Source: Dethiosulfovibrio faecalis
GTDB lineage: Bacteria > Synergistota > Synergistia > Synergistales > Dethiosulfovibrionaceae
Direction: 5' to 3'
Assembly: GCF_021568795.1 (NCBI RefSeq)
Contig: NZ_JAKGUE010000001.1
Location: forward strand, 62,001-126,000
Length of the DNA stretch: 64,000 bases
Shown: positions 8,908 through 36,425 of the stretch, in pieces
How the letters are laid out: each line of letters begins with the position of its first letter
How positions within the stretch are numbered: position 1 is the stretch's first letter
Program-made: the position numbers and the translations under genes
Notes under the pieces: model-generated
Told to the model about the DNA's origin: nothing
The model's input: the letters and a program-made list of their open reading frames with translations, nothing else
The model's database searches: none

Positions 8908-8911
8908 CCAT

Positions 8912-10404: not shown

Positions 10405-10499
10405 ACTACATAATAGCATTGGCCCCCTTTATGTCGATATAGGGAAAACCCCCTAATTTACTCCGTACTTTTGGATCCATAAAATCGAGCGTCCCGTCC

Positions 10500-10528: not shown

Positions 10529-10544
10529 GCTTTATCAACCAAAT

Positions 10545-10767
10545 CGGAATAAAGCGATGAAGAGAGCCAGTACCGATTGAAACCGGTCTCAGAGAGGGGA
10601 GCTCGTGGGCTGAAAGGCTTCCCGGCAAGGACTTTCGGGAATACCACCTCGGAGCTTGTCATGTACTTCTTTAGAGAGCCGGTTTTCTACCGGAACTGGA
10701 GTGGAACCGCGGCCGGAGTCGGTCGTCTCCAGGCATTGGGCCTGTAGAGATGATCGGGTCCGGTTTT
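10545..10767 (+). promoter_or_regulatory. T-box riboswitch, threonine-specific (ACC specifier)
   Basis: A leader RNA that senses uncharged tRNA and controls read-through. Visible elements in order: GATGAAGAGAG and AGTACC at the base of Stem I; CAGAGAGGGG; GGGCTGAAAGG; the specifier region GAATACCACC with codon ACC at 10643-10645 followed by a purine; and the T-box core GAGTGGAACCGCG (10699-10711), whose TGGA pairs with the tRNA acceptor end. A long imperfect terminator stem (about 10711-10763) and TTTT (10764-10767) follow. The Thr codon agrees with the downstream threonine synthase and homoserine kinase genes. Confidence 0.9.
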
Positions 10768-10792
10768 ACTTTATCTAGAGGAGGTCTTTTTC

Positions 10793-12783: not shown

Positions 12784-12784
12784 A

Positions 12785-13255: not shown

Positions 13256-13318
13256 ATTTTTTGAGGTACAATACCGGGAGTGCCATGAAAGTTTACATAG
13301 ACCTTTGGAGGGATCGAT

Positions 13319-14152
13319 TTGAGACTTTGCTATATGGACGGAAACTTCCTTCCCTTTGATCGTGCCGCTCTTCCTCTCTCGGATCACATAATACTTCGAG
13401 GCATAGGAGTCTTCGATCTCGTCAGGACCTACGGCAGAAGGCCCATGATGATGACTTACCATCTGGAAAGACTCTTGAAATCCGCTTCGGCTCTGGGAAT
13501 AGAGAACAAACTCGGAGTGGAGGCTATGAAATCCATAGTCAGAGAGGGAATCGGCCGGATGGATGGAGACGGAGAGGTTCTGGTGAACTTCTACATAACC
13601 GGAGGAGATAATTTCGTGGACGGATGTCGTTTCCCCGATCCACGTTACTTCGTTTCCTTTCAGGACCTGGTTCTTCCCGATAAGGAGCTTTACTCCAAGG
13701 GAGTCAGGCTTTTCCCCCTGGACAGAGCCAGGCTGATGCCCTCGGCGAAAAGCATAGACTACAGTGCCGCCTTGGCAAAAAACAGCGTCGATCCCGGGGC
13801 CCTCGAAGTGCTTTACTGTCCAGGGGGCGGAATAACCGAGGCGGGACACAGCAGTTTCTTCATGATAAAAGACGGAAAGGTCGTAACCGCTCCGGACGAC
13901 GTGGTTCTAGCCGGAACCACTCGATCTCTTCTCCTTCAGATACTGACGGAAAACGAGATAGACCTGGAGCTGCGGGTTCCGTCTCTGGAGGAGCTGTCCG
14001 AGGCCCAGGAGGCCTTTATAACCGGATCGGTGAAGGAGATAATGCCGGTCGTTCAGGTAGGGGACATGACGGTGGGAGACGGCAATCCCGGAGAATTTAC
14101 CGGTAGGATAAGGACACTATACAGAGAGAACATACCGAGATGGTTGGAGTAG
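13319..14152 (+). CDS. Class IV PLP aminotransferase (BCAT/D-amino acid aminotransferase/ADC lyase family)
   Basis: A fold-type IV PLP enzyme of 277 residues. The N-terminal MDGNFLPFDRAALPLSDH with GIGVFDLVRTY is typical of the family. The lysine in AKSIDYSAALA is the likely cofactor ligand, and GGGITEAGHSSFFMI corresponds to the phosphate-binding loop. Branched-chain aminotransferase, D-alanine aminotransferase and aminodeoxychorismate lyase cannot be separated with confidence by eye. The start is TTG 13319 after GGAGGG. It overlaps the next gene by 13 bases. Confidence 0.85.
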   Translation: MRLCYMDGNFLPFDRAALPLSDHIILRGIGVFDLVRTYGRRPMMMTYHLERLLKSASALGIENKLGVEAMKSIVREGIGRMDGDGEVLVNFYITGGDNFVDGCRFPDPRYFVSFQDLVLPDKELYSKGVRLFPLDRARLMPSAKSIDYSAALAKNSVDPGALEVLYCPGGGITEAGHSSFFMIKDGKVVTAPDDVVLAGTTRSLLLQILTENEIDLELRVPSLEELSEAQEAFITGSVKEIMPVVQVGDMTVGDGNPGEFTGRIRTLYRENIPRWLE

Positions 14153-15900
14153 GAAAAATCGTCTCTCTCGTTCGCTCGTTTTGCGAGAAAGCGGTAAAAC
14201 AGGTTGAACCGATCGATCCTATGAGCCGTAAGGACAGAATTTCCCTGAAAAGACTCTTTCAGACCCTGCCGGACGGAGTGGTCCTGCTGGACCAAGACGA
14301 GAGGGTGGTGGACGTCAACGACGCTTTCCTCGGTATATTCCGTTTCTCCAAAAAAGACCTGCTGGGGAATAAACTGGACGAGATGATTCTTCCCCCCGAC
14401 AGGGTGGACGAGGGACTGGCGATAAACCGAAGGATACTGGAAGATAAAAAAGTGGAGTTAGAGGGAACCCGTCTCAGAGGCGACGGAGAGATCATAAAGG
14501 TAATGATCTTCGGGTGTCCCATAGAGGTGGACCGAAAACTCGTCGGTTTCTACGGCATATATCGGGACGTCACGAGGCAGGCCGAGGTAGAGGCGAAGGT
14601 CCGTCGTCTGGCCTTTCGAGACGAACTGTGCGACCTTCCCAACAGGGTGTCTTTCGTGAGGGAAGGTCGTTTCAGGGTAAAGAGGGGCGACCCCTTCTCG
14701 ATACTCTACATCGATCTGGACCGGTTTAAAAACGTGAACGATACCTTAGGACACGCCATAGGCGATGAGCTGCTCCGTTACGTGGCAGACCGCATCTCCA
14801 GGGCGCTCGACCCCTCCGCCATGGTATCTCGTCTAGGCGGCGACGAGTTCGGCGTCATGATATATTCCGGCGATTACTGCGACGCCTACTCGGTGGGTAA
14901 ATCGATATTGGACTGTATGGACGGGCCGTTCAAGCTTTCCGAAAGGTCCCATATATCCATAGGCGCCTCGGTGGGAATCTCCGTCTATCCCGATCACGGC
15001 ATCACCTGGGAAGACCTTTTCGGCCATGCCGATATAGCCATGTACGAGGCTAAGAAATCGGGGCGAAAGATAGTCTTCTTCGACGACGTAATGGGGGTCT
15101 CTTTTCGGGAGCGTATAGGAATGGAACGTCGCCTCGCCGACTCTCTTGTAAGAGAGTCGGGGCTCTCTTTGGCATACCAGCCAAAGGTGGACATGTCCTC
15201 CGGAGAGGTCTTGGGATTCGAGGCCCTCTGTCGTTGGAAAGACGGAGAGGAGGACCGCTCTCCCGAGCTTTTCATACCGGCCGCTGAGGAAACAGGCCTC
15301 ATAGTTGACCTGGGACGATGGGTTATGGAGAAGGCCTGTCGTAGAGGAGCCCTCTGGCTGGAGGAGGGGCTTAGAGTTCCCCTGGCCGTTAATATATCGG
15401 CGAAACAGGTTCAACAGGACGACTTCGTACTTATGGTAGGTCGAATCCTGGAGGAAACGGGATTCCCTCCGGAACTTCTGGAGCTGGAGCTGACCGAGTC
15501 GACCCTGATGAAAGACCTGGACAGAAGCTGCAGTATGCTGGAAAGTCTGAAGGAACTGGGCGTCTCCCTCGCCATAGACGATTTCGGAACGGGATATTCG
15601 TCCCTAACCTATATGGCCCGTTTCGACGTGGACGTCCTCAAGATAGACCGATCCTTCATGCCGGGTAAAGAGGCCCCATCTTTGAACGAGGCTATAGTGA
15701 AGAGCGTCGTGGCCCTCGCCCGTGCGAGAGGGCTTAGGGTTATAGCCGAGGGAGTGGAGACGGAGGAACAGAGGGATCTGCTCCTCCGCATAGGCTGCGT
15801 ATCGGCGCAGGGCTTCCTTTATAGCCGCCCCGTGCCGGAAGAGGCCGTCGCCGATATGTTTTCTCGTGGCTTCGGTTCCCTTCAGCCCTCCTTAGGGTAG
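14140..15900 (+). CDS. PAS-GGDEF-EAL cyclic-di-GMP enzyme
   Basis: A 586-residue signalling protein with no membrane segment. A PAS domain (about 35-145, LPDGVVLLDQDERVVDVND) senses an unknown cue. GGDEF near residue 233 is intact, so diguanylate cyclase activity is possible. EAL near 360 is intact, with NISAKQ, DDFGTGYSS, LKIDRSF and AEGVETEEQ, so phosphodiesterase activity is possible. The RxxD inhibitory site is not at its canonical distance before GGDEF. Its last 9 bases overlap the 3' end of the convergent reductase gene. Confidence 0.92.
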   Translation: MVGVGKIVSLVRSFCEKAVKQVEPIDPMSRKDRISLKRLFQTLPDGVVLLDQDERVVDVNDAFLGIFRFSKKDLLGNKLDEMILPPDRVDEGLAINRRILEDKKVELEGTRLRGDGEIIKVMIFGCPIEVDRKLVGFYGIYRDVTRQAEVEAKVRRLAFRDELCDLPNRVSFVREGRFRVKRGDPFSILYIDLDRFKNVNDTLGHAIGDELLRYVADRISRALDPSAMVSRLGGDEFGVMIYSGDYCDAYSVGKSILDCMDGPFKLSERSHISIGASVGISVYPDHGITWEDLFGHADIAMYEAKKSGRKIVFFDDVMGVSFRERIGMERRLADSLVRESGLSLAYQPKVDMSSGEVLGFEALCRWKDGEEDRSPELFIPAAEETGLIVDLGRWVMEKACRRGALWLEEGLRVPLAVNISAKQVQQDDFVLMVGRILEETGFPPELLELELTESTLMKDLDRSCSMLESLKELGVSLAIDDFGTGYSSLTYMARFDVDVLKIDRSFMPGKEAPSLNEAIVKSVVALARARGLRVIAEGVETEEQRDLLLRIGCVSAQGFLYSRPVPEEAVADMFSRGFGSLQPSLG

Positions 15901-17267: not shown

Positions 17268-18570
17268 GTGACAAAAAGATTTATTAGTCTGTTCTTGTTC
17301 CACCTGGGCCTCGTCTTTCTCACAGTCTCAAAAACCATCAGATCCCATACCAGCGGACAATGCCGTCGATGTTCCATTGGACCAAACGCTATCCTGGGCA
17401 CGCTGTTATAACGAGGATGGAACTCCAATAGCAGGATATACTATTCAAGTAAGAAACGAAAAGGGAACGTACATGAGCAGTGGAAGTATTTCATCTATAG
17501 GGTCAAGTAGAATTACTTTCGAAACGTCCGGCTTTTACCCAGGGGATAAGTACACTTGGGAAGTTAGTGCTAGGGATAACAGGGGGGCTGTTTGGAAAAG
17601 TACGTTTAGTTTTACGACAACAGCCGTAGCATTGCAGACCGGAAAAGCAATTCTTGCGTACTCTATTCCCGGTCAGGTGAACTCTATAATCGACAGCTCC
17701 GCTCATACCGTCACCGTGACTATGCCTAGCGGAACGGATGTATCCTCTCTGGTAGCCGAATTTACCCTCTCAGGCGGAGCCTCTTCTGAGGTCGGCGGAG
17801 TAGCCCAGACAAGCAAGAAGACCGCCAACGACTTTACGAATCCCGTTACCTATAGAGTTACCGCCGAGGATAAAAGCGTCCAGAACTGGGTAGTCAGGGT
17901 AAACGTTGCCCCAGCTCCAAGGATCGGCAAGGATATAACCAGTTACTCTATTCCCGGTCAGGTGAACTCTATAATCGACAGCTCCGCTCATACCGTCACC
18001 GTGACTATGCCTAGCGGAACGGATGTATCCTCTCTGGTAGCCGAATTTACCCTCTCAGGCGGAGCCTCTTCTGAGGTCGGTGGAGTAGCCCAAATCAGTA
18101 AAAAGACCGCCAATGACTTTACGAATCCCGTTACCTATAGAGTTACCGCCGAGGATGAAAGCGTTCAAAACTGGGTAGTCAGGGTAAACGTTGCCCCAGC
18201 TCCAAGAATCGGCAAGGATATAACCAGCTACTCTCTTCCCGGTCAGGTGAGTTCTATAATCGACAGCACCGCTCATACCGTCACCGTGACCATGCCTAGC
18301 GGAACGGATGTATCCTCTCTGGTGGCTGATTTTACCCTATCCGACGGAGCCTCCGCTGAGATTGGGTCTCTAATTCAGGAGAGTGGGGTAACCGCTAATG
18401 ATTTTACATCTCCCGTCCCTTACAAGATAATCGCAGAAGATAAGTCTTTTCTGAATTGGACTGTCACGGTATATCTAGATACCGATCCTGTTACACCGGT
18501 GATACCAAAGGTTGAGCCTTCCGATATAGAACCTTTTAAATTGGAAGATGAAGATATAAGCTCCGGAGCC
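17268..18570 (+). pseudogene. 5' part of a disrupted secreted repeat protein (Synergist-CTERM type)
   Basis: A GTG at 17268 after AGAGGT begins a signal-peptide-like stretch (TKR then FISLFLFHLGLVFLTVS). This frame closes at a TAA shortly after. The body of the protein is in the +1 frame, open from about 17272 without a start codon until a TTG at 17377. Losing one A from the AAAAA at 17330-17334 would join them. The body has a fibronectin/Ig-like domain (PADNAVDVPLDQTLSW onward) and three ~95-residue DUF5018-like repeats, then is cut at 18570 by an insertion sequence. The other half lies at 20229-21059. The protein would be exported. Confidence 0.8.
17641..18495 (+). repeat. Three tandem 285-bp coding repeats
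   Basis: Units at 17641-17925, 17926-18210 and 18211-18495. Units 1 and 2 are nearly identical over most of their length; unit 3 keeps its first half and diverges in its second half. Each encodes one module with GQVxSIID, TVTVTMPSGTDVSSLVA, ANDFTxPVxY and a closing W-x-V strand. Confidence 0.93.
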
Positions 18571-18610
18571 TGTCAAGCGAAATGTCGCAAAAAGATCGAA
18601 TTGGAATGAC

Positions 18611-19705
18611 TCAGTCTCTGCGCTTTTCCTGGGACTCTTTCTCCGGGTTCAGATAGACCGCCTCCTCGATGGAGCAGTTTCTTATCGGCCTGTTTCTCCA
18701 TCTGTCCGGGTGTTTTCTCTTGGCTTCTTCCAGGGTTTTCTTCCTCTTTGCCAGTATCTCCGGGGCTTTCCCGTTATGCCTCTGCTCCGGCGTCACGTAG
18801 TTTAAGGCGCTGTGACGGTGGGTATGGTTGTACCAGGACACGAACCGGTAGGTCCAGGCCCTAGCGTCCTCTATGTCCCTGAAGCCTCCGCTGGGGAAGG
18901 CCGGTCTGTATTTCAGGGTCTTGAAGATCGATTCACTGTAGGGGTTGTCGTTGCTTACCCTCGGTCTGCTGTGGGAGAACAGTACTCCCAGTTTTTCCAT
19001 GGTGGCCCTCAATGTGGCGCTTTTCATTGGGCTTCCGTTGTCGGCATGCAGGATCAGAGGTTTGTCGGCAAGGCGGATCTTCTCCGACAGGACCGCTTTG
19101 GTTACCACCTCTGACGCCAGCTCTCCCGATTCTTCGTCGTAGATCTCCCAGTCGACTATCTTTCTGCTGTAGAGGTCTATTATGAGGTACAGGTAGTAGA
19201 ACAGGCCCTTGGCCGGTCCGCAGATGTAGGTTATATCCCAGGACCATAGCTGGTTGGGGCCGTCGGCTTTATGGGTTGTTATAGGTCTTTTTACCGGAGC
19301 CGCCGTTCTGCCTCTATGGTTGATCTGTCTGTGTTTCCTGAGTATCCTGTAGAATGTCGATTCAGAGGCGATGTATATGCCTTTTTCCAGTAGATCGTTC
19401 ACTATCTGGGCTGGCGGTGCGCTGGCGTATTCCGGGCTGTTGGCTATCTCGAGTACTTTCCGTTCTTCCTCTTGCGATAGTTTCTGAGGGGTCTTTCTGG
19501 GAGCGTGAGGTCTTTGGTCCTCTTTTACATGGCCCTCTTTGCACCATCTCTGGAAGGTTCTCTCAGTTATGCCGACCTCTCTACAGGCTTTAGCCTGGGT
19601 AGCTCCGCTCGATACGGCTTCTTCGATCAGTTCTACTGCTTTACGGCGATCCGAGGCACCGATCAGTCGTCCTCGTTTTCCCCCCAGATCGCCTGGACTT
19701 TTTTT
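18611..19705 (-). CDS. IS3-family transposase OrfB (DDE domain), expressed by -1 frameshift
   Basis: The rve-type catalytic part of the transposase. The acidic triad is visible as WSWDITYI, LHADNGSP and NPYSESIFKTLKY. The open frame has no obvious own start at its upstream end. It runs in the -1 frame relative to OrfA from the A7 tract (19699-19705), and begins with a second helix-turn-helix (RRKAVELIEEAV through GITERTFQRW). An internal GTG at 19402 could give only the catalytic part. Synthesis as an OrfAB fusion is expected from family behaviour. Confidence 0.85.
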   Translation of the reverse strand, partial: KKSPGDLGGKRGRLIGASDRRKAVELIEEAVSSGATQAKACREVGITERTFQRWCKEGHVKEDQRPHAPRKTPQKLSQEEERKVLEIANSPEYASAPPAQIVNDLLEKGIYIASESTFYRILRKHRQINHRGRTAAPVKRPITTHKADGPNQLWSWDITYICGPAKGLFYYLYLIIDLYSRKIVDWEIYDEESGELASEVVTKAVLSEKIRLADKPLILHADNGSPMKSATLRATMEKLGVLFSHSRPRVSNDNPYSESIFKTLKYRPAFPSGGFRDIEDARAWTYRFVSWYNHTHRHSALNYVTPEQRHNGKAPEILAKRKKTLEEAKRKHPDRWRNRPIRNCSIEEAVYLNPEKESQEKRRD

Positions 19706-20160
19706 CTCAACACTAGCAGGGCAGCCGCTTCGGCCAGGGCTTTGTCCTTACGTCTGAGCTCCTGTTCCAGCTTTTTGTGATCCTTCTTTACCTGGCTTAC
19801 CTCATGCATAAGCTCCCTGACCTTGAGGCTCTGGCCGTCGTTTGCCTCCTCGCAGGAGTTTCGCCAGCTTATAACCTGTTCGACGAACAGGCCCTTTTCC
19901 CTGCAGTACCGGGCCAGCTCCTCCTCGTTCATGGTGTAGGTCTCGTGGACTATGAGAAACTTGTCTCTGGAACTCCAGCTGTCCGGTCTATCTTCATCGC
20001 AGGGAGCGGCCTTGCCGGACGCACGGAGCTCTTTTCTCCAGTTGTAGAGGGTGGTCACCGTTATGCCAGTCTCCTTCGATAACTTAGGTATGGATATGTT
20101 CTCCGGCGGCATCATTCTCTTTTTGATTACCTCTTTTTGTTCTTTGCTGTACCTAGCCAT
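19663..20160 (-). CDS. IS3-family transposase OrfA (helix-turn-helix)
   Basis: A 165-residue protein with an N-terminal helix-turn-helix (ISIPKLSKETGITVTTLYNW) for binding the element ends, and a C-terminal coiled coil (VRELMHEVSQVKKDHKKLEQEL) for multimerisation. It is longer than the usual ~100 residues. The ATG at 20158-20160 is chosen because GGAGG is 8 bases upstream; a GTG three codons earlier overlaps that site. It contains the A AAA AAA slippery heptamer that leads into OrfB. Confidence 0.88.
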   Translation of the reverse strand: MARYSKEQKEVIKKRMMPPENISIPKLSKETGITVTTLYNWRKELRASGKAAPCDEDRPDSWSSRDKFLIVHETYTMNEEELARYCREKGLFVEQVISWRNSCEEANDGQSLKVRELMHEVSQVKKDHKKLEQELRRKDKALAEAAALLVLRKKVQAIWGENEDD

Positions 20161-20228
20161 GTGTCGCACCTCCAGGGAGCCTCTCTCGACTCGCTAAACT
20201 AGTCTATCATGCGACACCTATTTTGGCA

Positions 20229-21059
20229 GGTAGGGGCTCTGACAGTGGAGCAAAGCCTATGACTTCCAGTGAGACAGCAGACATAGTCAACGGCAACGGA
20301 GATCTTTTGAAATTATTTAGCGAGGATAAAGTAGCGGAGATAGTTGCCGTGAATCTTGACGGTGATGTAAAGGATATAAAGTTTCCTGCAAAGAAGGATC
20401 ACGCTAAGAACGTGACGGATATAGCCGTTAAATACGAAGGCTCTCAGGCTATAACTCCTGTGATTGCTCAGATAAAAAATAATGATTCTGATGATGGAGA
20501 TAACTTTGATTTATCTCTTCCTGTGGCCCAGATCAGGTCTCTTATGGCGAACGTCTCCAATAACACCCTGACCTTCCGTCTTAAAATCTCCTCAAAAGAA
20601 AGCGTGATAATGTTCAACGGGAAAAATTTGGTAGCGGAAAGACTCGCTACGGTAGAGGAAAAGGACGGAGGGTACTACGTTGTTGTAAATGTGTCCAATC
20701 GTCCAGGAACTGGTTTGACCTTCGAGGATCTATCGGGGTCCGTGTTTGCTGTGGATACGGAAGAGCATCTGATACAGACTATCATGGAAAAGATAGGCTC
20801 AAAGAATTATAGCTATCAGGATCTTGTAAACATGGGATTATTGAATCTTGATTCGTCTAAATGGTATGAATATAAGAGTGAAATAGATAAACTGGTGGAT
20901 CCAGTAAAAGAGGATATTCAAAAAGCTATCGATGCAATCAATACCGCAAAGCCTGTTCCCGCAAGCAGTGGAAGCGGTGGTGCTGGATGCTCTATAGGTG
21001 GGATTGCCCCAGCGGCATTTTTCTTGCTCTTGCCTTTGTTCCTGTTCCAGAAGAAATAA
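20229..21059 (+). pseudogene. 3' part of the disrupted protein with Synergist-CTERM tail
   Basis: This frame is in phase with the 5' part once the insertion sequence is removed. It encodes about 276 residues of unrecognised sequence rich in Asp, Lys and Val, then a low-complexity Ser/Gly linker and the tail GGAGCSIGG, a hydrophobic stretch (APAAFFLLLPLFLF) and QKK. Gly-Cys before a membrane segment with a basic end is the layout of Synergist-CTERM sorting signals, in which the tail anchors or is cleaved during surface attachment. Without the insertion the whole protein would have roughly 700 residues. A start inside the element end (TTG 20223) exists but has no signal peptide. Confidence 0.8.
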
Positions 21060-21688: not shown

Positions 21689-21719
21689 AGTGGTATGTTC
21701 CATTTTGGAACATACCACT
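21689..21719. repeat. Perfect 14-bp inverted repeat with 3-base loop
   Basis: AGTGGTATGTTCCA (21689-21702), TTT, and its exact complement (21706-21719). It is 18 bases inside the left direct repeat. There is no T tract and no adjacent gene that it would terminate. Confidence 0.7.
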
Positions 21720-21855: not shown

Positions 21856-22347
21856 ATGGTAGATCCAATAGAAAATCAAGTGATACGATTGCTCGAAGCA
21901 GCGGAAGATCTATATCACCGTCTTGTGTTGATAGTTGGAAAAAGTGGTTCCGGTAAAACTTCCGTTGTTCAAAATTTGGCAAAACTGTATGATGTCGAGC
22001 CTATCAATATCAATCTGTGCCTATCGAAGGAGTTGCTTGAATTAACTAGAAAACAAAGGCAATTGAGGTTGGGCAGGATTTTAGCACAGACAGTCAACGG
22101 GAATGGGGACAAGGTTTTTCTGGACAACATTGAGATCCTTTTTGATGTTGAGCTTAAGCAGGATCCGTTGCGCTTGTTGCAGGGAATATCCCGAAATTTA
22201 ACTGTTGTGGCATCTTGGAATGGCACCTTTGAAAAAGGCAAGCTGATATATGCGGAGCCAGGTCACCGAGAATATAGAAGTTACGATTTAACAGACACTC
22301 TGGTTGTCTGCGTGAGCGGTGAGGCTACGTTAAATTTAAAAAACTAA
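21856..22347 (+). CDS. brxF: BREX-3 P-loop protein BrxF
   Basis: A 163-residue nucleotide-binding protein that opens BREX type 3 operons; its biochemical role is not well defined. The Walker A motif GKSGSGKT spans residues 28-35, and a Walker B-like VFLDNIEILFD lies near residues 87-97. The C-terminal part is beta-rich. ATG 21856 follows AGGAG. The gene is A+T-rich with lysine AAA and leucine TTG codons, unlike the flanking host genes. It is 16 bases from brxC. Confidence 0.85.
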   Translation: MVDPIENQVIRLLEAAEDLYHRLVLIVGKSGSGKTSVVQNLAKLYDVEPININLCLSKELLELTRKQRQLRLGRILAQTVNGNGDKVFLDNIEILFDVELKQDPLRLLQGISRNLTVVASWNGTFEKGKLIYAEPGHREYRSYDLTDTLVVCVSGEATLNLKN

Positions 22348-22363
22348 GTGAGGGTAGACTAAT

Positions 22364-25300
22364 ATGAAGTACGGAGAGCTAATTCAATTTGATCCGATAG
22401 AATCGGTCGTTCAGCTACGGGATGCTGACAAAAAAAGTGCTGCTCATCAACTGGTTGATACCTACGTAATTTCTGATGAAATGGCAGAGCGAATGGTTCG
22501 CCTTGTAATTCCTCAGCTTCAGTTTGAACAGCCTCTAGATAACAAAGGCCTCTTGGTGGTCGGTAATTACGGTACCGGTAAATCTCACTTGATGTCTGTC
22601 GTTTCCAGTATTGCTGCCGATGCATCTCTGCTTGACAGTCTAAACCACGAAAGCGTTAAGTCGGACGCAGAAAAGATTGCCGGTAAATTTAAGGTCATCC
22701 GTACAGAAATTGGAGCAACGACCATGTCACTCAGAGATATTCTGGTGGCAGAGCTGGAAGAGCATCTCGAGAATATGGGCGTAAGTTACCTCTTCCCGGA
22801 CTCGGGAACAATCACCAGCCATAAGCGGGTTTTTGAAGACATGATGTCCAAGTTTGGCGAAGTTTTTCCTGAACAAGGTCTCCTACTGGTAGTCGATGAG
22901 CTACTGGATTATCTGAGGACTCGAAAGGATCAGGAGCTTATCCTCGATTTGAACTTCCTTCGCGAAGTCGGCGAGGTTTGCAAGGACCTTCGCTTCCGTT
23001 TTATGGCCGGTGTGCAGGAAGCCATATTTGACAGCCCGAGATTCGCCTTTGTCGCTGACAGCATTCGTCGGGTAAAAGACCGGTTTGAACAGATACTTAT
23101 TGCCCGAAACGACGTTAAGTTTGTGGTCTCGGAGCGTCTGTTAAAGAAAACCACAGAACAACAGGCAAAGATCAGAGATTATCTCACCCCGTTTGCAAAA
23201 TATTACGGTGGCATGAACGAGCGCATGGACGAATTTGTCCGGCTGTTTCCGATACACCCTGATTACATAGATACGTTCGAAAGAGTGACCGTTGTCGAAA
23301 AGCGTGAAGTCCTCAAAACCCTATCCATAGGCATGAAGGGCTTTTTGGATAAAGACGTCCCGGACAACGAGCCCGGCCTGATCGCCTTTGACAGCTACTG
23401 GAATACCTTAAAACAAAATCCATCCTTCCGGGCTATCCCAGAAATCCGGGAGGTGATTGACTGTAGTCAAGTGTTGGAATCACGGATCGAAAACGCCATC
23501 ACCCGCAAGCAATACAAACCCATGGCACTGCGCCTGATCCACGCGTTATCCGTCCACCGCCTAACCACTGGTGATATCTACGCGCCAATGGGAGCCAGCG
23601 CAGAGGAACTGCGCGACCGTCTCTGTCTGTTTGATCCATTGATTGCAGAACTTGGCAGCGATGAGCCCGATAGGGACTTGCAGACCCACGTTGAAACCGT
23701 TCTTCGAGAAATACATAAAACCGTCAGTGGTCAGTTTATCTCCTTTAACGCTGATAACCGCCAGTTCTATCTTGACCTAAAGAAAATCGACGATTTTGAT
23801 GCCCTGATCGACAAACGGGCCGAGAGCTTGGGTGATGCACAGCTCGATCGATTCTATTACGAAGCCTTAAAACGAGTCATGGAATGCCAGGACTCGACCT
23901 ATGTGACCGGTTACAAAATATGGCAGCACGAACTGGTCTGGCAGGAGCACAAGGCTGCCCGCACCGGCTACCTCTTTTTCGGTGCACCCAACGAGCGATC
24001 TACTGCCGTACCGACCCGGGATTTTTATATCTACTTCATTCAGCCAAACGACCCACCACGATTTAAAGATGATAAGGTCAGCGACGAGGTCTTCTTCCGC
24101 TTAAAGCCGTCAAAGGATACCGGTGAAGAATTCCAGACATCTCTGAAAAGCTATGCCGCAGCCCTCGACTTAGCGGGCACATCTTCAGGCCATGCCAAGG
24201 CCACCTATGACGCCAAAGCGAATGGCTTCCTGAAAAAACTGGTGCAATGGCTGCAAAAACATATGTTGGAGGCCTTCGAGGTTACCTATCAGGGCCGGGC
24301 CAAATCCATGACGGAATGGGCAAAAGGCAAGTCCATCAGAGACATTTCAGGTCTATCACCGCACGAAACCATCAACTTCCGGGATCTTGTTAACACCATT
24401 GCCGGAGTGTGCCTTGCACCTAACTTTGAAAATCAGGCACCCGAGTACCCGTTTTTTCCCGTCCTGATTACCGAGAGCAACAGGGCCCAAGCGGCCCAAG
24501 ATGCTCTCCGGGCAATCGGCGGCCAGAACCGAACCAAACAGGCAACGGCTGTACTAGATGCCTTGGAACTTCTGGATGGAGAAAAGATAGCCCCTTACAA
24601 ATCCAAATACATAAGTTTCATCCTCGACATCGTAAAGGCCAAAGGTCACGGCCAGGTCGTCAACCGGAATGAAATCATCAAGGACGATCACGGTTTGGAA
24701 TATATGAATCCGGATAGCTCTCGTCTTGAACCGGAATGGGTAACGGTACTGATAGCCGCTCTGGTTTACTCCGGCGACATCGTTCTGTCTATCCCTGGGA
24801 AGAAGTTCGACGCTACCGGACTCCAGCAGCTTGCGGCAACTGGAATGGATGAACTCATCCGATTCAAGCACATTGAGCAACCCAAGGAATGGAATCTCCC
24901 GGCACTCAAGTCTATGTTCGAACTTCTCGGCATGACACCTGGAATGGCCCAGCTGATTACTCAAGGCAAAGAAGAACCGATTCAGGATCTGCAGCAAGCC
25001 GTAGGAAAACTGGTTAAACGGATCGTGATGACACAACAGGCCTTGCGTGAAGGGCTTTCCTTCTGGGGACTTGATCTTCTTGCCGGGACCGATCTGGCCA
25101 ATCAGGTATCTGGACTGGATGCTGCCAAGACGTTCCTTGAGTCGCTCCAAGCCTACACATCACCGGGCAAATTGAAGAATTTCCGCTACAGCATGGACGA
25201 AGTGAAGGCCCATGAAAAAGCGGTAAAAGCGCTGGATGATCTAGATGCTCTGCGAAAATTTGTCATGGACCACAGTCCGACGGCCTCATGGCTTTCAACC

Positions 25301-26104
25301 GCCGAGGGCGTCCTACCTCCAGAGCATAACTGGGTGAACCGCATGAAAACCACCCGGCAGGATGTACTGGAAATGCTCAATCAGACTGACCTGACAAAGC
25401 TGGCGAACCAGTCCCAGGTTATCGGGGCAAAACTTCAGCAGCTTAAAAAAGACTACATCGTTGTCTACATCGGCCTGCATACCAAGGCCCGACTGGGCGT
25501 AAACGACGACAAACGCAAAGCAGCCTTGGTGGAAGACCATCGACTGCAGACGCTCCTTAAGCTGGCAGGTGTCGATCTGATGCCGAGACAGCAACTCATT
25601 GATTACCAGAACCGGTTGGCCGGGCTGAAAAGCTGCTTTGCCTTGACCGAAGGGAATTTGGATACCACACCGGTCTGTCCTCACTGCGGGTTCCGCCCAT
25701 CGGTGGAAACTGGTGTCGCCCAAGGATCACAGATGATCGATCAGATGGATAACGATCTCGATGCCATGGTGGGTAAGTGGACTTCAACTCTTTTGGCTAA
25801 TCTGGAAGATCCAATTACTCAAGCTAACATGGATCTACTGAAGGCGGAGGATCGTGAGCCGCTGGAAGCCTTTATCAAATCCGGGGAGCTTCCGGTTCCG
25901 TTGGATACAAACTTTGTCCACGCCCTGAAAGAAGTGCTGTCAGGATTGGTAAAAGTATCGGTTAATGCGCAGGAGATACAAAAAGCATTGCAGATTGAAA
26001 GTGGCCCGGCAACACCTGCGGAAATCAAAAAACGGTTCGACGATTTCATCGATCAGCTGACCAAAGGCCAGGATCCGGCTAATGTGCGAATCGTAATGGA
26101 ATAA
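22364..26104 (+). CDS. brxC: BREX-3 large ATPase BrxC
   Basis: A 1246-residue ATPase of the BrxC/PglY group (DUF6079-like), essential for phage exclusion in studied BREX systems. Walker [11 protein letters not shown] is at residues 67-76, and [12 protein letters not shown] near residue 170 is the Walker B region. The rest is mostly helical. A zinc-knuckle-like CPHCGFRP is near residue 1105. Codons such as CGC/CGT and CTG are frequent, again unlike the host. ATG 22364 follows GTGAGGG. No frameshift or stop interrupts it. Confidence 0.9.
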
Positions 26105-26128
26105 TACCAGACGGGCGGGATATAAAAT

Positions 26129-28972
26129 ATGATCAAAAAAAAGAATTTATTGAAGAAAAACGTCGCTCTCGGCAAACCTGACGGCGGAAACCTTTTCGAT
26201 GAAGAGGTTGTGTCAGATGATGGGCCGGTGAAATGCCTCGGTCTGGAATTTGAAAACGACGACGCCAGGCGTGCCCACTTTACGGAGGAACTGCGCAAAA
26301 AACTGCAGGATCCGGAATTCCGCAAGATTGAGGGCTTTCCGATCGGTGAAGATGAGGACATCCTAAAACTGAGCGATCCGCCATATTACACCGCCTGCCC
26401 GAACCCATGGATTGCCGATTTTATTGATGAATGGGAAAGGCAGAAGCCGGAAAAGCCAGCGGATTATCATTATCATCGGGAGCCTTTTGCAGCTGATGTC
26501 AGTGAAGGAAAAAACGACCCGATCTACAATGCTCACTCCTATCATACCAAGGTGCCTCACAAAGCAATTATGCGCTACATCCTGCATTACACCGAACCGG
26601 GCGACATTGTTTTTGATGGTTTCTGTGGAACCGGAATGACAGGTGTGGCTGCCCAGATGTGTGGTGATCGGGATGTGGTCACGTCGCTTGGTTATCAAGT
26701 GAAACCAGATGGTACTATTCTTCAGGAAGAGACTGATGAGGATGGCAAAAAAGTATGGAAACCCTTCTCAAAACTCGGCGCTCGCAAGGCCGTGTTAAAT
26801 GACCTGTCTCCTGCGGCTACCTTTATCGCTTACAACTACAACACACCGGTTGATGTTTATGCATTTGAGAGGGAGGCAAAACGTATTCTCGCTGAAGTGG
26901 AAGAGGAATGCGGCTGGATGTATGAAACACTTCATACGGATGGTAAGACGAAAGGCAAGATTAATTATGCTGTGTGGAGTGATGTGTTCGTTTGCCCTGA
27001 ATGTGCTGGTGAGGTTGTGTTTTGGGATGCCGCGGTCGATAAAGAAGCAGGAAAAGTTAGAGACTCTTTCCCATGTCCACATTGTCACGCTGAATTAACT
27101 AAACGAAAAATGGAACGTGCCTGGACAACGAAATTTGATTCCGCCCTGAATGATTCTGTTAAACAGGCAAAGCAAGTGCCCGTTATTATTAATTATTCGA
27201 TAAAAGACCAGAGTGGTCGTTTTGAAAAAAGTCCGGATAAAAACGATTTAACACTGATTGAGAAAATTGAGAACAGCGAAATCCATTACTGGTTTCCAAA
27301 TTATCGCATGATGAAAGGAAAAGAAACCCGCCGCAATGATCCTGCTGGTATCACCCATGTGCATCATTTCTATACAAAAAGAAATTTATGTGTGTTAGCT
27401 GCTGTTAGAATAAGAAGCTCTTCAAGTTTTTTGATTAGTCAACTTGCTATGTGGTGGACGTTAACAAAACTCTATAGATATAGATGGGCGGGTGGAATAG
27501 CGGGTGCTGGGGGTGGCCCAATGGCAGGAACATTATACATTCCATCTTTGATTAAAGAAATTTCAGTATTGGTCTCTGCAGTGGACGTATTCAATAAGAA
27601 TATTCGCAAAAAAAAATTATTTGCGAACTTCTTGAGGCACCCGCTTTCAACGAGTTCCGCTAATTGGATTGATTATAACAACAACAGTGTGGATTACATC
27701 TTTACGGATCCACCTTTCGGAGCCAATCTCAATTACTCAGAGCTTAGCTTCATTTGGGAATCATGGTTAAAAGTATGGACGAATAACGTGCCAGAGGCTA
27801 TTGAAAACTCTGTTCAAGGCAAGGGCGCTACAGAGTATCGAAACTTAATGGCTGGCTGCTTCAAAGAAGCCTACCGAGTGCTAAAGCCTGGTCGCTGGAT
27901 GACGGTTGAGTTTTCAAACACCAAAGCATCGGTTTGGAGTAGTATCCAAACAGCCCTTACTGAAGCTGGATTTATTGTAGCAAACGTTTCGGCCCTCGAT
28001 AAGAAGCAAGGAAGTTTTAAGGCAGTAACAACGTTAACAGCTGTTAAACAAGACCTTGTTATCTCAGCCTATAAACCCAATGGTGGCTTTGAAGAGAGGT
28101 TCGAGGAAGAGGCTAAATCTGAAGAGGGTGTCTGGGATTTCATCCAAACTCACTTAAAATACCTACCAGTAACTAAAAAACTGGGATTGGACTTTGTCGC
28201 AATACCTGAACGTGACCCACGAATCCTTTACGATCAGGTTATTGCCTATTACGTGCGCAAAGGCTACAACGTTCCCATCGACAGCCAAGATTTTCAGCTT
28301 GGCTTATCACAACGTTTCCCCGAGCGTGATGGCATGTACTTCCTGCCGGAACAGGTGGCGGAATACGACCGTAAGAAGATGATCGGTGGCGGCAGGCCAC
28401 TGCAACAGTCGCTGTTTATTTCCGATGAAGCATCGGCCATCGAATGGCTTCGCAGTCTTTTGCGTGACAAGCCGCAGAGCTTTCAGGATATCAATCCACT
28501 CTTTATGAAGGAGATTGGTGGCTGGAGCAAAAGTGAGATAGGCTTGGAGCTCTCCACACTGCTGGAGCAGAACTTCCTGGCATACGACGGCAAAGGCCCC
28601 GTTCCCGACCAGATCCACAGCTACCTCTCCAGTAACTGGAAGGATATGCGTAATCTGCCGAAAGAGGATCCGGCGTTAGTCGCCAAAGCCAAAAATCGCT
28701 GGTATGTGCCCGATCCTAACAAAGCGGGGGACCTTGAAAAACTGCGCGAAAAAGCCCTCTTGAAAGAGTTTGAAGAATACAAGCAGGCCAAAAAGAAGCT
28801 CAAAATATTCCGGCTTGAGGCGGTTCGCGCTGGATTCAAGAAAGCGTGGCAGGAACGGGACTATAAAGTGATTATCGCCGTAGCCGAAAAAATCCCGAAC
28901 AACGTGCTTGAGGAAGATCCCAAGCTGCTCATGTGGTACGACCAAGCGGTTACACGGGTGGGAGACGAGTAA
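26129..28972 (+). CDS. pglXI: BREX-3 adenine-specific DNA methyltransferase PglXI
   Basis: This enzyme modifies adenine in the host DNA at the system's recognition site, marking self. The protein has 947 residues. The SAM-binding motif FDGFCGTGMTG is near residue 160. A catalytic-type motif TDPPFGANLNYSEL is near 527, and another DPPYYTACPNP near residue 83. Two CxxC pairs (CPEC, CPHC) near 289-316 form a probable zinc ribbon inserted between the motifs. Recognition sequence cannot be predicted. It starts 24 bases after brxC, and its stop overlaps the next start (TAATG). Confidence 0.88.
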   Translation: MIKKKNLLKKNVALGKPDGGNLFDEEVVSDDGPVKCLGLEFENDDARRAHFTEELRKKLQDPEFRKIEGFPIGEDEDILKLSDPPYYTACPNPWIADFIDEWERQKPEKPADYHYHREPFAADVSEGKNDPIYNAHSYHTKVPHKAIMRYILHYTEPGDIVFDGFCGTGMTGVAAQMCGDRDVVTSLGYQVKPDGTILQEETDEDGKKVWKPFSKLGARKAVLNDLSPAATFIAYNYNTPVDVYAFEREAKRILAEVEEECGWMYETLHTDGKTKGKINYAVWSDVFVCPECAGEVVFWDAAVDKEAGKVRDSFPCPHCHAELTKRKMERAWTTKFDSALNDSVKQAKQVPVIINYSIKDQSGRFEKSPDKNDLTLIEKIENSEIHYWFPNYRMMKGKETRRNDPAGITHVHHFYTKRNLCVLAAVRIRSSSSFLISQLAMWWTLTKLYRYRWAGGIAGAGGGPMAGTLYIPSLIKEISVLVSAVDVFNKNIRKKKLFANFLRHPLSTSSANWIDYNNNSVDYIFTDPPFGANLNYSELSFIWESWLKVWTNNVPEAIENSVQGKGATEYRNLMAGCFKEAYRVLKPGRWMTVEFSNTKASVWSSIQTALTEAGFIVANVSALDKKQGSFKAVTTLTAVKQDLVISAYKPNGGFEERFEEEAKSEEGVWDFIQTHLKYLPVTKKLGLDFVAIPERDPRILYDQVIAYYVRKGYNVPIDSQDFQLGLSQRFPERDGMYFLPEQVAEYDRKKMIGGGRPLQQSLFISDEASAIEWLRSLLRDKPQSFQDINPLFMKEIGGWSKSEIGLELSTLLEQNFLAYDGKGPVPDQIHSYLSSNWKDMRNLPKEDPALVAKAKNRWYVPDPNKAGDLEKLREKALLKEFEEYKQAKKKLKIFRLEAVRAGFKKAWQERDYKVIIAVAEKIPNNVLEEDPKLLMWYDQAVTRVGDE

Positions 28973-30780
28973 TGACGGAACAAGAAATTTTTGATCTTCT
29001 TAATCAGCATGAGTGGAAGGATGTTGAGTTTAAAGAAGCCCGAACTTCAGTTCCTAAGAGTGCTTATGAATCTGTCTCTGCCTTTGCTAATACTGAAGGT
29101 GGGCACCTTGTTTTTGGTGTAAAAAAAGATGGTTCCGATTTCGAGGTTGTTGGGGTCATAGATGTAGACAAGGTTCAGAACGATTTCATTACAGCTCTCA
29201 GGCAAAAGGACAAAATCAGTTGCATCATCGATGTAAAAGAGGACTTGAAAACGGTTTCGGAAAAAGACCTGCTTATTTTTTATATCCCGGAAGCAAATCG
29301 TTCTGAAAAACCAGTTTACCTGAGTGGTGATATGAAAAGAAGCTTTCTCCGCAAAGGTGCATGTGATGTCAAATGCTCTGATGCAGAATTGAAACGCCTG
29401 CTGAGCGATGCGTCAAAGGATCGATATGATGGTGGCACTGTTAATTATGATATCGGTAAATGCTTCAACTCAAAGGATATTGCCTGGTATCGTCGCCAAT
29501 ATGAAGAAAAAGCTGGAACACGAAGTTATGCTGATTTAGATGATGAAGAGTTTTTGTTTCAATTTGGCTTGGTTAAAGAGACTGAATCGGGTCGAAAACC
29601 AACCGTTGCTTCCATACTTCTATTTGGTCAGGATGGCTATCTGAGAGGTTTTCTGCCAAGGCCGATTATTGACTGCCAGCGTTATCTCTATAAGTCCGAT
29701 GCCATCGGTATTGAGCGCTGGCATGATCGGATCGTTTGCGATTACAATCTTATACAGACTTGGGCCTCGATCATGGAATGGTATTATCGCTTTGCAGAAA
29801 TTCCTTTTGAAGTTGATCCCAGAACCATGCAGCGGAAGGACCAGCCTGTTGACTACATTCCTTTCCGTGAAGCCATTGTAAATATGTTGATTCATCAGGA
29901 TTACTCGGATCATGTCCGCAAGCCTGTTATTCAGCATTTTTCTGATTTAACCCGCTTCTGGAATCCAGGTGATGCGTTTGCTTCAGTCGAAGATTTACTC
30001 GATCCCGGCGAAAAAGAGACAAGAAATCCACTGATTGTCAGTGCTTTCAGGCGAATAGGATTCAGTGAAAACGCTGGTTGGGGTTTGCGTGATGTGTTCA
30101 AGTCATGGCGGGGATTGGGTCATGTTCCTCCCGAGATTATCAATGATAAACCAAAGAAAGCTTTCGAACTTATTTTAAAAAAGGAAATATTGATTTCAAA
30201 CTATCAACGAAAGTTCCAAGAAGCTATCGGCGTTCATCTCTCTGAAGATGAAGCCGCTGTGTTTGCATTTGCATGTAAAAAGTTTACACCGTTTTCTCTG
30301 AGTGAAATAAGAGCTGTCATTAACAAACCTGTCTCCACCTGTACTGATGTGGCAAATCAGCTGGTTAATCAGGTTTTGCTGGTAAAACTGGCAGATAGCC
30401 TCTTTGAACTAACACCCGTTATGAGACAGAGGTTTCAGGCCGAGACCCAAGTCGAGGCCTATGTTGAGGAACAAGAGGCCCAAGTCGAGGCCTATGTTGA
30501 GGAACAAGAGGCCCAAGTCGAGGCCCATGTAAGCCTGACATCTACAGAGCGAAAAATTTTGTTTGCATTAGTAGAAAACGAGAAATCAGCCAAGGAACTC
30601 ACTAAAGCCGCTGGTTATAAATCCAGGACCGGTAATTTCAAGCGTAGTCTTGAGAAATTATTGTCAGAAAAACTGATCCAAATGACAAACCCTGAAAATC
30701 CCAAGGCCAGCAACCAGAAATATGTTATTTCTGAACACGGTTTCAGACTTTTAAAAGCATGGGAGGATCCGAGTGACTAA
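28972..30780 (+). CDS. Schlafen AlbA_2-domain ATP-binding protein inserted in the BREX operon
   Basis: A 602-residue protein of the COG2865 type. The N-terminal AlbA_2 domain is marked by EFKEARTSVPK and AFANTEGGHLVFGV (residues about 20-55). A GHKL-like ATP-binding region follows (IVNMLIHQDYS, then GFSENAGWGLRDVF). A Gln/Glu repeat linker comes next, then a C-terminal winged helix (ERKILFALVENEKSAKEL). Relatives are treated as DNA- or RNA-binding regulators or possible nucleases. It is not one of the six core BREX-3 genes. ATG 28972 shares a base with the pglXI stop, so it is co-translated. Confidence 0.8.
   Translation: MTEQEIFDLLNQHEWKDVEFKEARTSVPKSAYESVSAFANTEGGHLVFGVKKDGSDFEVVGVIDVDKVQNDFITALRQKDKISCIIDVKEDLKTVSEKDLLIFYIPEANRSEKPVYLSGDMKRSFLRKGACDVKCSDAELKRLLSDASKDRYDGGTVNYDIGKCFNSKDIAWYRRQYEEKAGTRSYADLDDEEFLFQFGLVKETESGRKPTVASILLFGQDGYLRGFLPRPIIDCQRYLYKSDAIGIERWHDRIVCDYNLIQTWASIMEWYYRFAEIPFEVDPRTMQRKDQPVDYIPFREAIVNMLIHQDYSDHVRKPVIQHFSDLTRFWNPGDAFASVEDLLDPGEKETRNPLIVSAFRRIGFSENAGWGLRDVFKSWRGLGHVPPEIINDKPKKAFELILKKEILISNYQRKFQEAIGVHLSEDEAAVFAFACKKFTPFSLSEIRAVINKPVSTCTDVANQLVNQVLLVKLADSLFELTPVMRQRFQAETQVEAYVEEQEAQVEAYVEEQEAQVEAHVSLTSTERKILFALVENEKSAKELTKAAGYKSRTGNFKRSLEKLLSEKLIQMTNPENPKASNQKYVISEHGFRLLKAWEDPSD
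30448..30531 (+). repeat. 33-bp in-frame repeat, 2.5 copies
   Basis: Units at 30448-30480 and 30481-30513 are identical, and a partial third follows. Each encodes QVEAYVEEQEA in the linker between the ATP-binding and winged-helix parts. Confidence 0.9.
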
Positions 30781-30806
30781 TTTGGCGTCGATGGAGATCG
30801 TTGTCT

Positions 30807-33675
<2,869 letters not shown>

Positions 33676-33683
<8 letters not shown>

Positions 33684-35670
33684 CTGGCGAAGCACCATCC
33701 TTGAAAATTTTGTACCGAATGTCGCCAAACTGACGCTGGTATCTGATCCTGATTGCCTGCTGACCGAGGAAAAACTGGCAATGGGGCTGCGAGACCGTGG
33801 GTTTGATCTCATCGAGTTTAATGACCCCATGGAGTTCAGATATGCCTATGAGTCGAAATATCGATCCATTTGGGACCGGGGCGAATATACCGATTTGGTT
33901 GTGGTCCTTCGCTTGCAGAATGCTGAGCTGGAATCGCTGCCTTACGACCTGCTCCAGGCTGGCCGCAAACTGTCGTTCAACCTGGGTGACCTCTTCCCCA
34001 ATCTGAGCTACCCGGTCATTGAGAAACTCGACCGGGGCTTGCTGGACTTGCTTTATGAAGCCCAGCGCAAGTCGCCACCGGATCGCATGGGCGACAACAC
34101 CACCAAGGATTTTATCCTTCGACATGTATTTGGTGTGGCACCAGAACTCATATCCACAGAGGTTGAGCTTCTCCGCTTTTTGTTGCGGTTACACTACGGG
34201 AATTTGGCAATACCATCAATGCTGGCAGATAGGTTGGTTGATGTATTTGAAAGCAGTGGAAGTTTTAAAGGCTGGAGTCTGTCTCAGATCATTCCAGATG
34301 CAGAGCAGTTCTTTGTATTCATACAGGAACGCTGGCCAATATTCCTTGAAAACCTGAATCAAGCAAATCAGGTCAAAGAAGATTCTGAAGCCTACGGCTT
34401 AAAGTTCCAAGGGCCTGTGATACTTCCTTTCGACCATCAAGATATTAGGGTTTATATCGATAATTTATTTGTTGAGGGTAAACTTACACCGGTCGACTTG
34501 CCCGGCATGGATATAGCGAAAGATTCGTGGGTTTTAAGCGGTATTTCAGCAGCCCAATCAGATGGCGAGGGTCTCAGGATTTCTCGGCTGTTTGAGATTG
34601 TTGATACAGCCGACTTATCGACGGATTCGAGATACACTGACTGGATTGCGTTCTCCATGAAATGGGCGGAGCTTTCAGCGCTCATACATACGGCAAGCAA
34701 TGCCCGGTATAAGAAGCGTTATAGTGAAATAGGTCAAAAGCTGAATAGCTGCTTTGCCGATTGGCTGGAAACTCATTATGCTAGCCTTATAAACCTACCG
34801 CCCTCAACTCCAGCAATGTTGCACCACGTGCCGCGACATCTGGCCCGATCCATTGAAGATCAAAAGAATAAAAAGATAGCACTGGTGGTTATAGATGGCC
34901 TTTCGCTGGACCAGTGGATAACGGTTCGAAACATAATCCAGAAGCAAAACAGCGATCTTGTCCTGCGCGAATCAGCAACGTTCGCGTGGATACCAACGCT
35001 CACGTCTGTTTCACGACAAGCCATATTTTCAGGCAAGCCGCCGATTTATTTTCCCTCTTCCATCAACTCAACAAACAGCGAAGAGAAACTGTGGAAACAG
35101 TTTTGGCAAGGCCATGATGTTCCGAAGCTGGAGATCATTTATAAACGCAGTCTCGGAGATGGTGATGCCGAGGTCGTTATGGATAACTTAATCAATCCGG
35201 CACATACTAAGATCATTGGGCTGGTAATCGATAAAGTTGACAAGATCATGCATGGAATGCAGCTCGGAGCGGCAGGCATGCATAATCAGATAGATCAATG
35301 GTGCCGAGGTGAATACCTGACCTCTCTGCTTAATTATCTGAGTAACCATGGCTATGAAATTTGGATAACCTCAGATCATGGCAACGTAGAATCGATAGGC
35401 AAGGGACGACCAACGGAAGGTGCTATTGCGGAGAGCCGTGGAGAAAGGGTTCGTATATATCCGACACCGGAACTGCGCTCACAGGTCTCTTCTATATTTC
35501 CCTTTGCGCGAGAATGGCTTCCGTCGGGGCTGCCAGACAATTATTTCCCATTAGTTGCCTCCGGGAATGATGCATTTGTTGATGAAGGAAAGTTGATTGT
35601 CGGCCATGGAGGTGTTGCTATCGAAGAAGTTATTGTGCCTCTGATCAAAGTAGAAAGGAGGACACAATAA
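33676..35670 (+). CDS. pglZ: BREX-3 PglZ, alkaline-phosphatase-like domain protein
   Basis: The hallmark protein of BREX systems, 664 residues. The N-terminal WRSTILENFVPNVAKLTLVSDPDCLL is typical. The phosphatase-fold metal-binding positions are visible as VIDGLSLDQW near residue 405, TSDHGN near 565 and GHGGVAIEEVIVP near 642. GTG 33676 is preferred over an ATG at 33664 because GGAGGT sits 5 bases before it. The stop TAA overlaps the start of the next gene by one base. Confidence 0.88.
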
Positions 35671-36425
35671 TGAGAAAGCGACACGACAAACTGGGCATCA
35701 AGCAGACCATTCAAAAACACTGGATGGACTATGTTGTTAAAATGATGTTGGCTGGATTCAGGGAAAAAGAAATTAGAATGGAATTAGATGAATTTTTAGC
35801 AACGCAAAAACAAAGCGGTGGTACCGGTCAGAGAGGTAAAAAAACATATGGCATGGCTATCAGTATCCTCGCATCGTGGTTTGCACCGGATAAAGATTTA
35901 ATTCCCTTTAGGGATCATGCTCTTGCACTTATTCGGAATGAGAATCCCCGAAACTGGCTTCCGTATCACTGGGCGGTTATCTCTGCGTCATATCCCTTCT
36001 GGTTTAATGTCGCAAAACAGACTGGGAGGCTTTTCAGCCTCCAAGATCAGATTACACAGGTTCAAGTTTTCTCCCGGCTCAAAGAGCAATACGGCGACAG
36101 GGAAACGGTGGCTAGAAATGCCCGGTATACAGTCCGATCTTTTGTTGCGTGGGGCGTGTTAAAGGATTCCAATGCCAAAGGCTGCTATGAACAATGCAAA
36201 CCGACGTCGGTCAGTGAACCGAACCTGACAATTCTTTTATACGAAGCCGCTCTATATGCTGATAAAGAAGGAAAAGCCGCTCTTGGATTATTGAAAAGCA
36301 ACCCGGCATTCTTCCCATTTCAATTACCCGTATTGACAGGCGACTACATCTCACAGCAGAGTAATACTATTGATGTCGTCCGCTACGGACTGGATGATGA
36401 GCTTTTGAAGCTGAAGTATTTATAA
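35670..36425 (+). CDS. brxA: BREX-3 BrxA-family protein
   Basis: A 251-residue soluble protein, last in the operon. In BREX the small BrxA-type (DUF1819) protein is a helical DNA-binding protein required for defence. Visible features are a basic N-terminus (RKRHDKLGIKQTIQKHW), helical spacing throughout, and TYRSFVAWGVL-like winged-helix spacing in the middle (YTVRSFVAWGVLKDS). Family assignment rests partly on position after pglZ. The right-hand 15-bp repeat begins 4 bases after its stop. Confidence 0.72.
   Translation: MRKRHDKLGIKQTIQKHWMDYVVKMMLAGFREKEIRMELDEFLATQKQSGGTGQRGKKTYGMAISILASWFAPDKDLIPFRDHALALIRNENPRNWLPYHWAVISASYPFWFNVAKQTGRLFSLQDQITQVQVFSRLKEQYGDRETVARNARYTVRSFVAWGVLKDSNAKGCYEQCKPTSVSEPNLTILLYEAALYADKEGKAALGLLKSNPAFFPFQLPVLTGDYISQQSNTIDVVRYGLDDELLKLKYL

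What the first reader, a model, noticed from the sequence alone, without database searches (positions are those of the whole stretch)
28972..30780. Extra Schlafen/AlbA_2 gene spliced into the BREX-3 operon
The gene sits between pglXI and brxHII with start-stop overlap (TAATG), so it is made with the operon, yet it is not a core BREX gene. AlbA_2 proteins may bind nucleic acid or act as regulators. It may be a second defence module or a built-in switch.
Basis: partly seen in the sequence, partly recalled or inferred. Interest (0 to 1): 0.65.

Follow-up and report, generated by a model that had tools for sequence, protein, structure and literature searches.

The report
Schlafen-type gene inside BREX-3 defence operon
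A bacterium's six-gene BREX-3 anti-virus operon carries a seventh gene, a Schlafen-type protein that probably cuts RNA as a back-up defence; such add-on genes are common in BREX-3 and the kind is already described, but how it is switched on is untested.

Summary
ORF 28972-30780 (602 aa) lies between pglXI and brxHII, its ATG overlapping the pglXI stop, in a complete BREX-3 operon (brxF-brxC-pglXI-[gene]-brxHII-pglZ-brxA) with no convincing internal terminator. Its domains are Schlafen AlbA_2, GHKL-type ATPase, a central winged helix and a Fic-like_C winged helix.

It is a recurrent accessory, not a core gene. Of 53 BREX-3 loci with both sites flanking pglXI readable, 23 carry a Schlafen-type gene, 46 some cargo, 7 none. 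Schlafens entered BREX-3 several times and changed site. In a sister genome the same gene is broken while the core stays open, and a second Schlafen fills the site that is empty here.

The two glutamates without which rat Schlafen13 is inactive are kept (E14, E19). The less critical acid is displaced (K52, then D53). A back-up RNase effector is likelier than an operon switch; nothing was tested experimentally.

The kind is published: Schlafen-histidine-kinase-wHTH proteins linked to BREX in at least 1,017 taxa (PMC12839542). Added here: the two-site cargo pattern, a central winged helix in all 22 intact BREX-3 residents of this subfamily, and a brxC remnant beside a copy now in a type I restriction operon.

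The parts
28972..30780 (+). Schlafen-type gene, 602 aa (P0001)
   Evidence: open ORF, ATG overlapping the pglXI stop; PF04326, PF13749 and PF21247 matches
29011..29373 (+). AlbA_2 / Schlafen domain, residues 14-134; E14, E19, K21 align with the SLFN catalytic region; K52-D53 at the third-acid position
   Evidence: alignment A2; PDB profile hits to SLFN5/11/12/14 and entry 5yd0; residue table
29923..30150 (+). GHKL-type ATPase domain (HATPase_c_4), residues 318-393; N-box-like motif REAIVN just upstream (299-304), GxG at 369-371
   Evidence: invariant E300, N304, G369, G371
30184..30411 (+). central winged helix, about residues 405-480
   Evidence: AF2 model; weak MarR-family profile hits; filled in intact BREX-3 residents of the subfamily, absent from five non-BREX relatives
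30445..30527 (+). tandem-repeat linker (AQVEAYVEEQE units), low confidence in the model
   Evidence: pLDDT below 50 at 495-522; one unit fewer in the sister genome
30553..30729 (+). C-terminal winged helix (Fic-like_C), residues 528-586
   Evidence: PDB profile hit to the Fic 4rgl C-terminus, 4e-13
21856..22347 (+). brxF
   Evidence: NF033453, 190 bits against a cut-off of 50
22364..26104 (+). brxC
   Evidence: PADLOC BrxC, 2110 bits
26105..26128 (+). site 1 (brxC|pglXI), empty here (24 bp); 26 of 68 surveyed loci hold a Schlafen-type gene here
26129..28972 (+). pglXI methyltransferase
   Evidence: PADLOC PglXI, 1513 bits
30807..33683 (+). brxHII helicase
   Evidence: PADLOC BrxHI|BrxHII, 1337 bits
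33664..35670 (+). pglZ
   Evidence: NF033449 BREX-3 PglZ, 873 bits against a cut-off of 250
35670..36425 (+). brxA
   Evidence: PADLOC BrxA, 304 bits
36516..36561 (+). intrinsic-terminator-like site closing the operon
   Evidence: 20-bp stem then T run

Best explanation
The gene encodes an accessory back-up effector of the BREX-3 operon: a Schlafen-family metal-dependent endoribonuclease (AlbA_2 domain), most likely held inactive and switched by an ATP-binding GHKL domain and winged-helix domains that sense DNA or a BREX component. It is made from the same mRNA as the core. When BREX is overwhelmed or blocked it would cut tRNA or other RNA and stop translation in the infected cell. Shown here: location, domain make-up, retention of the two key glutamates and of ATP-site motifs, recurrence and exchange as cargo, dispensability of an intact copy. 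Inferred: RNase activity, RNA target, ATP gating, the trigger, and any physical contact with BREX proteins.
For: Profile matches to mammalian Schlafens in the PDB. E14 and E19 have the E-x4-E spacing of rat SLFN13 E205/E210, and E205A and E210A are absolutely inactive there (PMC5862951); both are invariant in the 14-row subfamily alignment. ATP-site residues E300, N304, G369 and G371 are invariant. Other occupants of the two sites are largely defence-like modules: OLD-TOPRIM with a UvrD helicase, AAA_15 ATPases with an RNA ligase, Mrr-STAND, a YhcG nuclease, PHP-SMC. In one locus the AlbA_2 domain is replaced by DUF4062 in front of the same ATPase and Fic-like_C parts (L087), which suggests the N-terminus is the exchangeable effector. 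dN/dS against the sister is 0.175 for residues 1-425; core genes with synonymous changes give 0.09-0.19. The same assignment is made on independent data in PMC12839542.
Against: No activity was measured. The two glutamates occur in nearly all AlbA_2 proteins sampled, in and out of BREX operons, so they do not separate a nuclease from a regulator. The third acid (SLFN13 D248, position 52 here) is K52, followed by D53; L089 has neither. In SLFN13 that residue is the less critical one. The dN/dS value rests on 22 synonymous and 15 non-synonymous changes.
Confidence: 0.6

Rival explanations
1. Hitchhiking stand-alone defence gene: the Schlafen protects on its own and merely rides in a safe, expressed site of the BREX-3 operon, with no functional coupling to BREX.
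For: The two sites also hold unrelated modules. Schlafens changed site and entered BREX-3 several times (at least 5, best estimate 10 label changes, 4 site changes). Relatives sit outside BREX-3, in type I R-M operons and elsewhere. The intact gene is dispensable in the sister. Schlafen distances track core distances only weakly (r 0.26-0.34 against 0.25-0.82 between core genes).
Against: One subfamily is concentrated in BREX-3 across many phyla, and a central winged helix goes with BREX-3 residence. The weak co-inheritance is still above permutations (p 0.01-0.04).
Confidence: 0.25
2. Built-in switch: a DNA-binding regulator of the BREX-3 operon.
For: Two winged helices; a perfect 31-bp palindrome upstream of brxF (21689-21719), unique in the genome and conserved in the sister.
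Against: Among 51 loci with readable upstream DNA only the window has such a palindrome, and Schlafen-bearing loci do not differ from the rest. Three Schlafen-bearing loci (L030, L094, L120) also have a WYL-type gene upstream (that scan was weak). The gene is mid-operon and shares its sites with nucleases.
Confidence: 0.1
3. A nucleic-acid-binding recruitment factor for BREX with a dead or redundant active site.
For: The third acid is displaced here (K52-D53) and missing in L089.
Against: Both glutamates that are essential in SLFN13 are invariant in the subfamily.
Confidence: 0.05

Closest known systems
BREX-linked Schlafen RNases (Rakesh and Krishnan, NAR 2026, PMC12839542)
   Same: Schlafen fused to a minimal histidine kinase and wHTH, encoded within or next to the core BREX genes; reported in at least 1,017 taxa; endoRNases proposed as back-up suicidal effectors
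   Different: The sections read do not describe the two sites flanking pglXI, the central winged helix, or a copy that left BREX-3 with a piece of brxC; the supplements could not be opened, so these may be in them
DIP2311 (PDB 3lmm)
   Same: best fold match to the model, E 5e-24, aligned along most of the protein
   Different: 16-17% identity, TM-score 0.36-0.44; its own genomic context was not examined and its function is not established here
Mammalian Schlafens (SLFN13, SLFN11, SLFN14)
   Same: AlbA_2 core; E-x4-E pair aligned
   Different: one AlbA_2 match here; third acid displaced; a GHKL ATPase and winged helices follow it
BREX type 3
   Same: all six core genes present in one operon
   Different: one extra gene between pglXI and brxHII

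Membership tests
BREX type 3 | brxF, brxC, pglXI, brxHII, BREX-3 pglZ and brxA in one cluster | tested here: met
Schlafen / AlbA_2 (PF04326) | profile match above the gathering score | tested here: met
   60 bits against 25.3
Schlafen / AlbA_2 (PF04326) | E-x4-E pair (SLFN13 E205/E210) | tested here: met
   E14 and E19, invariant in A2
Schlafen / AlbA_2 (PF04326) | third acid (SLFN13 D248) | tested here: inconclusive
   position 52 is K, position 53 is D; a one-residue shift of the hairpin cannot be excluded
Schlafen / AlbA_2 (PF04326) | endoribonuclease activity | not testable with these tools
   needs biochemistry
BREX-linked Schlafen RNase (PMC12839542) | Schlafen + minimal histidine-kinase ATPase + wHTH, within the core locus | tested here: met
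GHKL ATPase (HATPase_c_4, PF13749) | profile match and N-box / GxG residues | tested here: met
   40 bits against 26; E300, N304, G369, G371 invariant
GHKL ATPase (HATPase_c_4, PF13749) | ATP binding or hydrolysis | not testable with these tools
   needs biochemistry
BrxR-type BREX regulator | winged helix with WYL domain at the head of the operon | tested here: not met
   no WYL match; gene is mid-operon

The most novel reading that the evidence does not exclude
A Schlafen subfamily is specialised for BREX-3: its extra central winged helix docks on a BREX component or on BREX-processed DNA, so that failure or inhibition of BREX directly licenses RNA cleavage. All 22 intact BREX-3 residents of the subfamily have the domain. 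Seven non-BREX relatives lack it; the exception is one Bacteroidota group in type I R-M operons, of which one member still carries the 3' end of brxC.
Probability: 0.25. Interest if true: 0.65.

Novelty: new member of a known kind. Interest (0 to 1): 0.4.

Why it matters
It shows BREX-3 as a layered system whose operon has two recurrent cargo sites around the methyltransferase gene, with Schlafens the commonest recognised cargo. If the RNase is gated by BREX, it would link bacterial Schlafens to a specific trigger. The central winged helix gives one defined piece to delete and test.

Tried and rejected
Operator shared by Schlafen-bearing operons: none found beyond the window's own palindrome. 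WYL-regulator anticorrelation: the home-made WYL scan found only 4 proteins, so it is uninformative. Phage origin: a P0001 scan of viral contigs found nothing, the alignment found two partial relatives, and phage records give only about 27-29% partial matches over about 65% of the protein. RNA elements: none in 16000-38000. 'Central winged helix is exclusive to BREX-3': rejected after the Bacteroidota type I R-M copies turned up. PADLOC's weak Aga_SIR2 match (22 bits, residues 193-379) was not pursued. Searches centred on a locus id failed and were redone with genome handles; the first dN/dS script failed and was rerun.

Full report
What is there. The ORF at 28972-30780 (+) encodes 602 aa and starts on the last A of the pglXI stop. 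The operon is brxF 21856, brxC 22364, pglXI 26129, this gene, brxHII 30807, pglZ 33664, brxA to 36425, with gaps of 16, 24, -1, 26, -20 and -1 bp and family matches for every core gene. A strong terminator-like hairpin follows brxA and none comparable lies inside on the + strand. Operon GC is 47.3%, the gene 42.4%, the 64-kb window 53.1%, so the operon looks acquired. The window lies in contig 1 of a 2.67-Mb genome; the Synerg-CTERM match at 20223-21059 points to Synergistota.

Domains. AlbA_2 at 14-134, HATPase_c_4 at 318-393, Fic-like_C at 528-586. The AlphaFold2 model (mean pLDDT 83, pTM 0.68) shows a further winged helix at about 405-480; profile hits to MarR-family proteins in that region are weak (E 0.03-0.4). 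Residues 495-522, a repeat linker, are low confidence. The best fold match is DIP2311, 3lmm. The subfamily profile reaches 2kyy, 3lmm, Fic 4rgl and mammalian Schlafens.

Active site. E14, W15, E19 and K21 are invariant in 14 subfamily proteins. Counting along the 5yd0 sequence printed places SLFN13 D248 at position 52 here, which is K in the window, followed by D53. E205A and E210A abolish SLFN13 activity, while the counterpart of D248 is less critical (PMC5862951). The pair of glutamates is near universal in the AlbA_2 proteins of my sample, so it supports but does not prove a nuclease.

Survey of BREX-3. A PglXI-alignment scan of genome contigs gave 79 loci, to which plasmid and Synergistota loci were added and duplicates removed. 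Two sites flank pglXI. Site 1 (brxC|pglXI): 26 of 68 with a Schlafen-type gene, 22 empty, 20 other. Site 2 (pglXI|next core gene): 7 of 62 Schlafen, 20 empty, 35 other. Both readable: 53 loci, 23 with a Schlafen, 46 with cargo, 7 empty. Limits: the scan kept only the 80 loci closest to this PglXI; 'other' means a gap of at least 300 bp; the Schlafen count includes a few fragments (L042, L061, L100) and two proteins that share the ATPase but not AlbA_2 (L087, L128). Other cargo is largely defence-like by Pfam, read from 20 representatives.

Sister genome. In G108 (same genus) most of the aligned DNA is about 95-98% identical. The same Schlafen sits at the same place, but its 3' half is frameshifted and split by an insertion carrying a DDE transposase, while the core reading frames remain open. 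Site 1, 24 bp in the window, holds a different Schlafen there. This is a natural empty/filled pair and shows that an intact copy is dispensable. dN/dS for residues 1-425 is 0.175; core genes with synonymous changes give 0.09-0.19 (few changes).

Tree. 64 Schlafen-type proteins, quick method. One starred clade of 25 rows holds 20 BREX-3 residents from many phyla, including an archaeon, and 5 others. BREX-3 residence needs about 10 changes on the tree (at least 5 forced by starred branches; 21.7 in shuffles), and site needs 4. The window and its sister, both at site 2, are nested among site-1 relatives. Several long branches make deep placements unsure.

Central winged helix. Nineteen intact BREX-3 residents have it and five non-BREX relatives lack it. 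Profile coverage adds three residents with it (L197, L202, L203) and two non-BREX relatives whose match stops at 408-409 (L198, L204). Six related Bacteroidota copies have it outside BREX-3; in L191 the gene lies between HsdR-like and HsdM-like genes. In L196 the bases just before the start codon read GKVRIVMEN, the C-terminus of BrxC. Of 61 VRIV[MLIV]E hits in 4.7 million six-frame residues of the held loci, 59 have the residues typical of the BrxC tail in front, one of the other two (L089) is a BrxC tail, and the last is L196. I infer that this copy left BREX-3 site 1.

Mechanism. Best reading: back-up RNase effector (0.6). Rivals: uncoupled hitchhiker (0.25), operon switch (0.1), binding factor with a weak active site (0.05). 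Steps shown and inferred are separated in the best explanation.

Known work. PMC12839542 reports Schlafen RNases with a minimal histidine kinase and wHTH linked to BREX and BREX-related systems in at least 1,017 taxa, among back-up suicidal effectors. It cites a preprint on bacterial Schlafens in anti-phage defence that I could not read. This locus is therefore a new member of a known kind. Any suggestion that the site pattern, the central domain and the brxC remnant are unreported is limited to the sections I read.

Noticed in passing
window 21689-21719: Perfect 31-bp palindrome (14-bp arms, 3-nt centre) about 140 bp upstream of brxF, single copy in the genome, conserved in the sister; not shared with other BREX-3 loci. 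Candidate operator of unknown owner.
   Followed up: partly
window 18564-20235: IS3-family element (transposase match at 18611-19402) between ORFs 17377-18609 and 20223-21059, whose sequences are contiguous in sister G108: one repeat-rich Synerg-CTERM protein gene appears split by it.
   Followed up: partly
L196, bases just before the Schlafen start (strand -): Remnant of the brxC 3' end in front of a Schlafen gene next to a type I R-M gene: a trace of cargo moving between defence systems.
   Followed up: partly
L157 (G136) 160-15826: BREX-1-like operon (brxC, pglX, pglZ, brxL) with an AAA_13/PDC-S06 gene and a Schlafen between pglX and pglZ.
   Followed up: no
window 21856-36425 against L036/L162: Synonymous divergence from the sister varies along the operon (brxC 0.05, pglXI 0.18, brxHII 0.03, brxA 0.39), which looks like a recombination mosaic.
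   Followed up: no
L079 and L120: Two pglXI-like genes in tandem in one BREX-3 operon.
   Followed up: no
window 30445-30527: Tandem repeats in the linker before the C-terminal winged helix; relatives have different repeats (TPQV, TEQV, TGQA) at the same place, and the sister has one unit fewer.
   Followed up: partly
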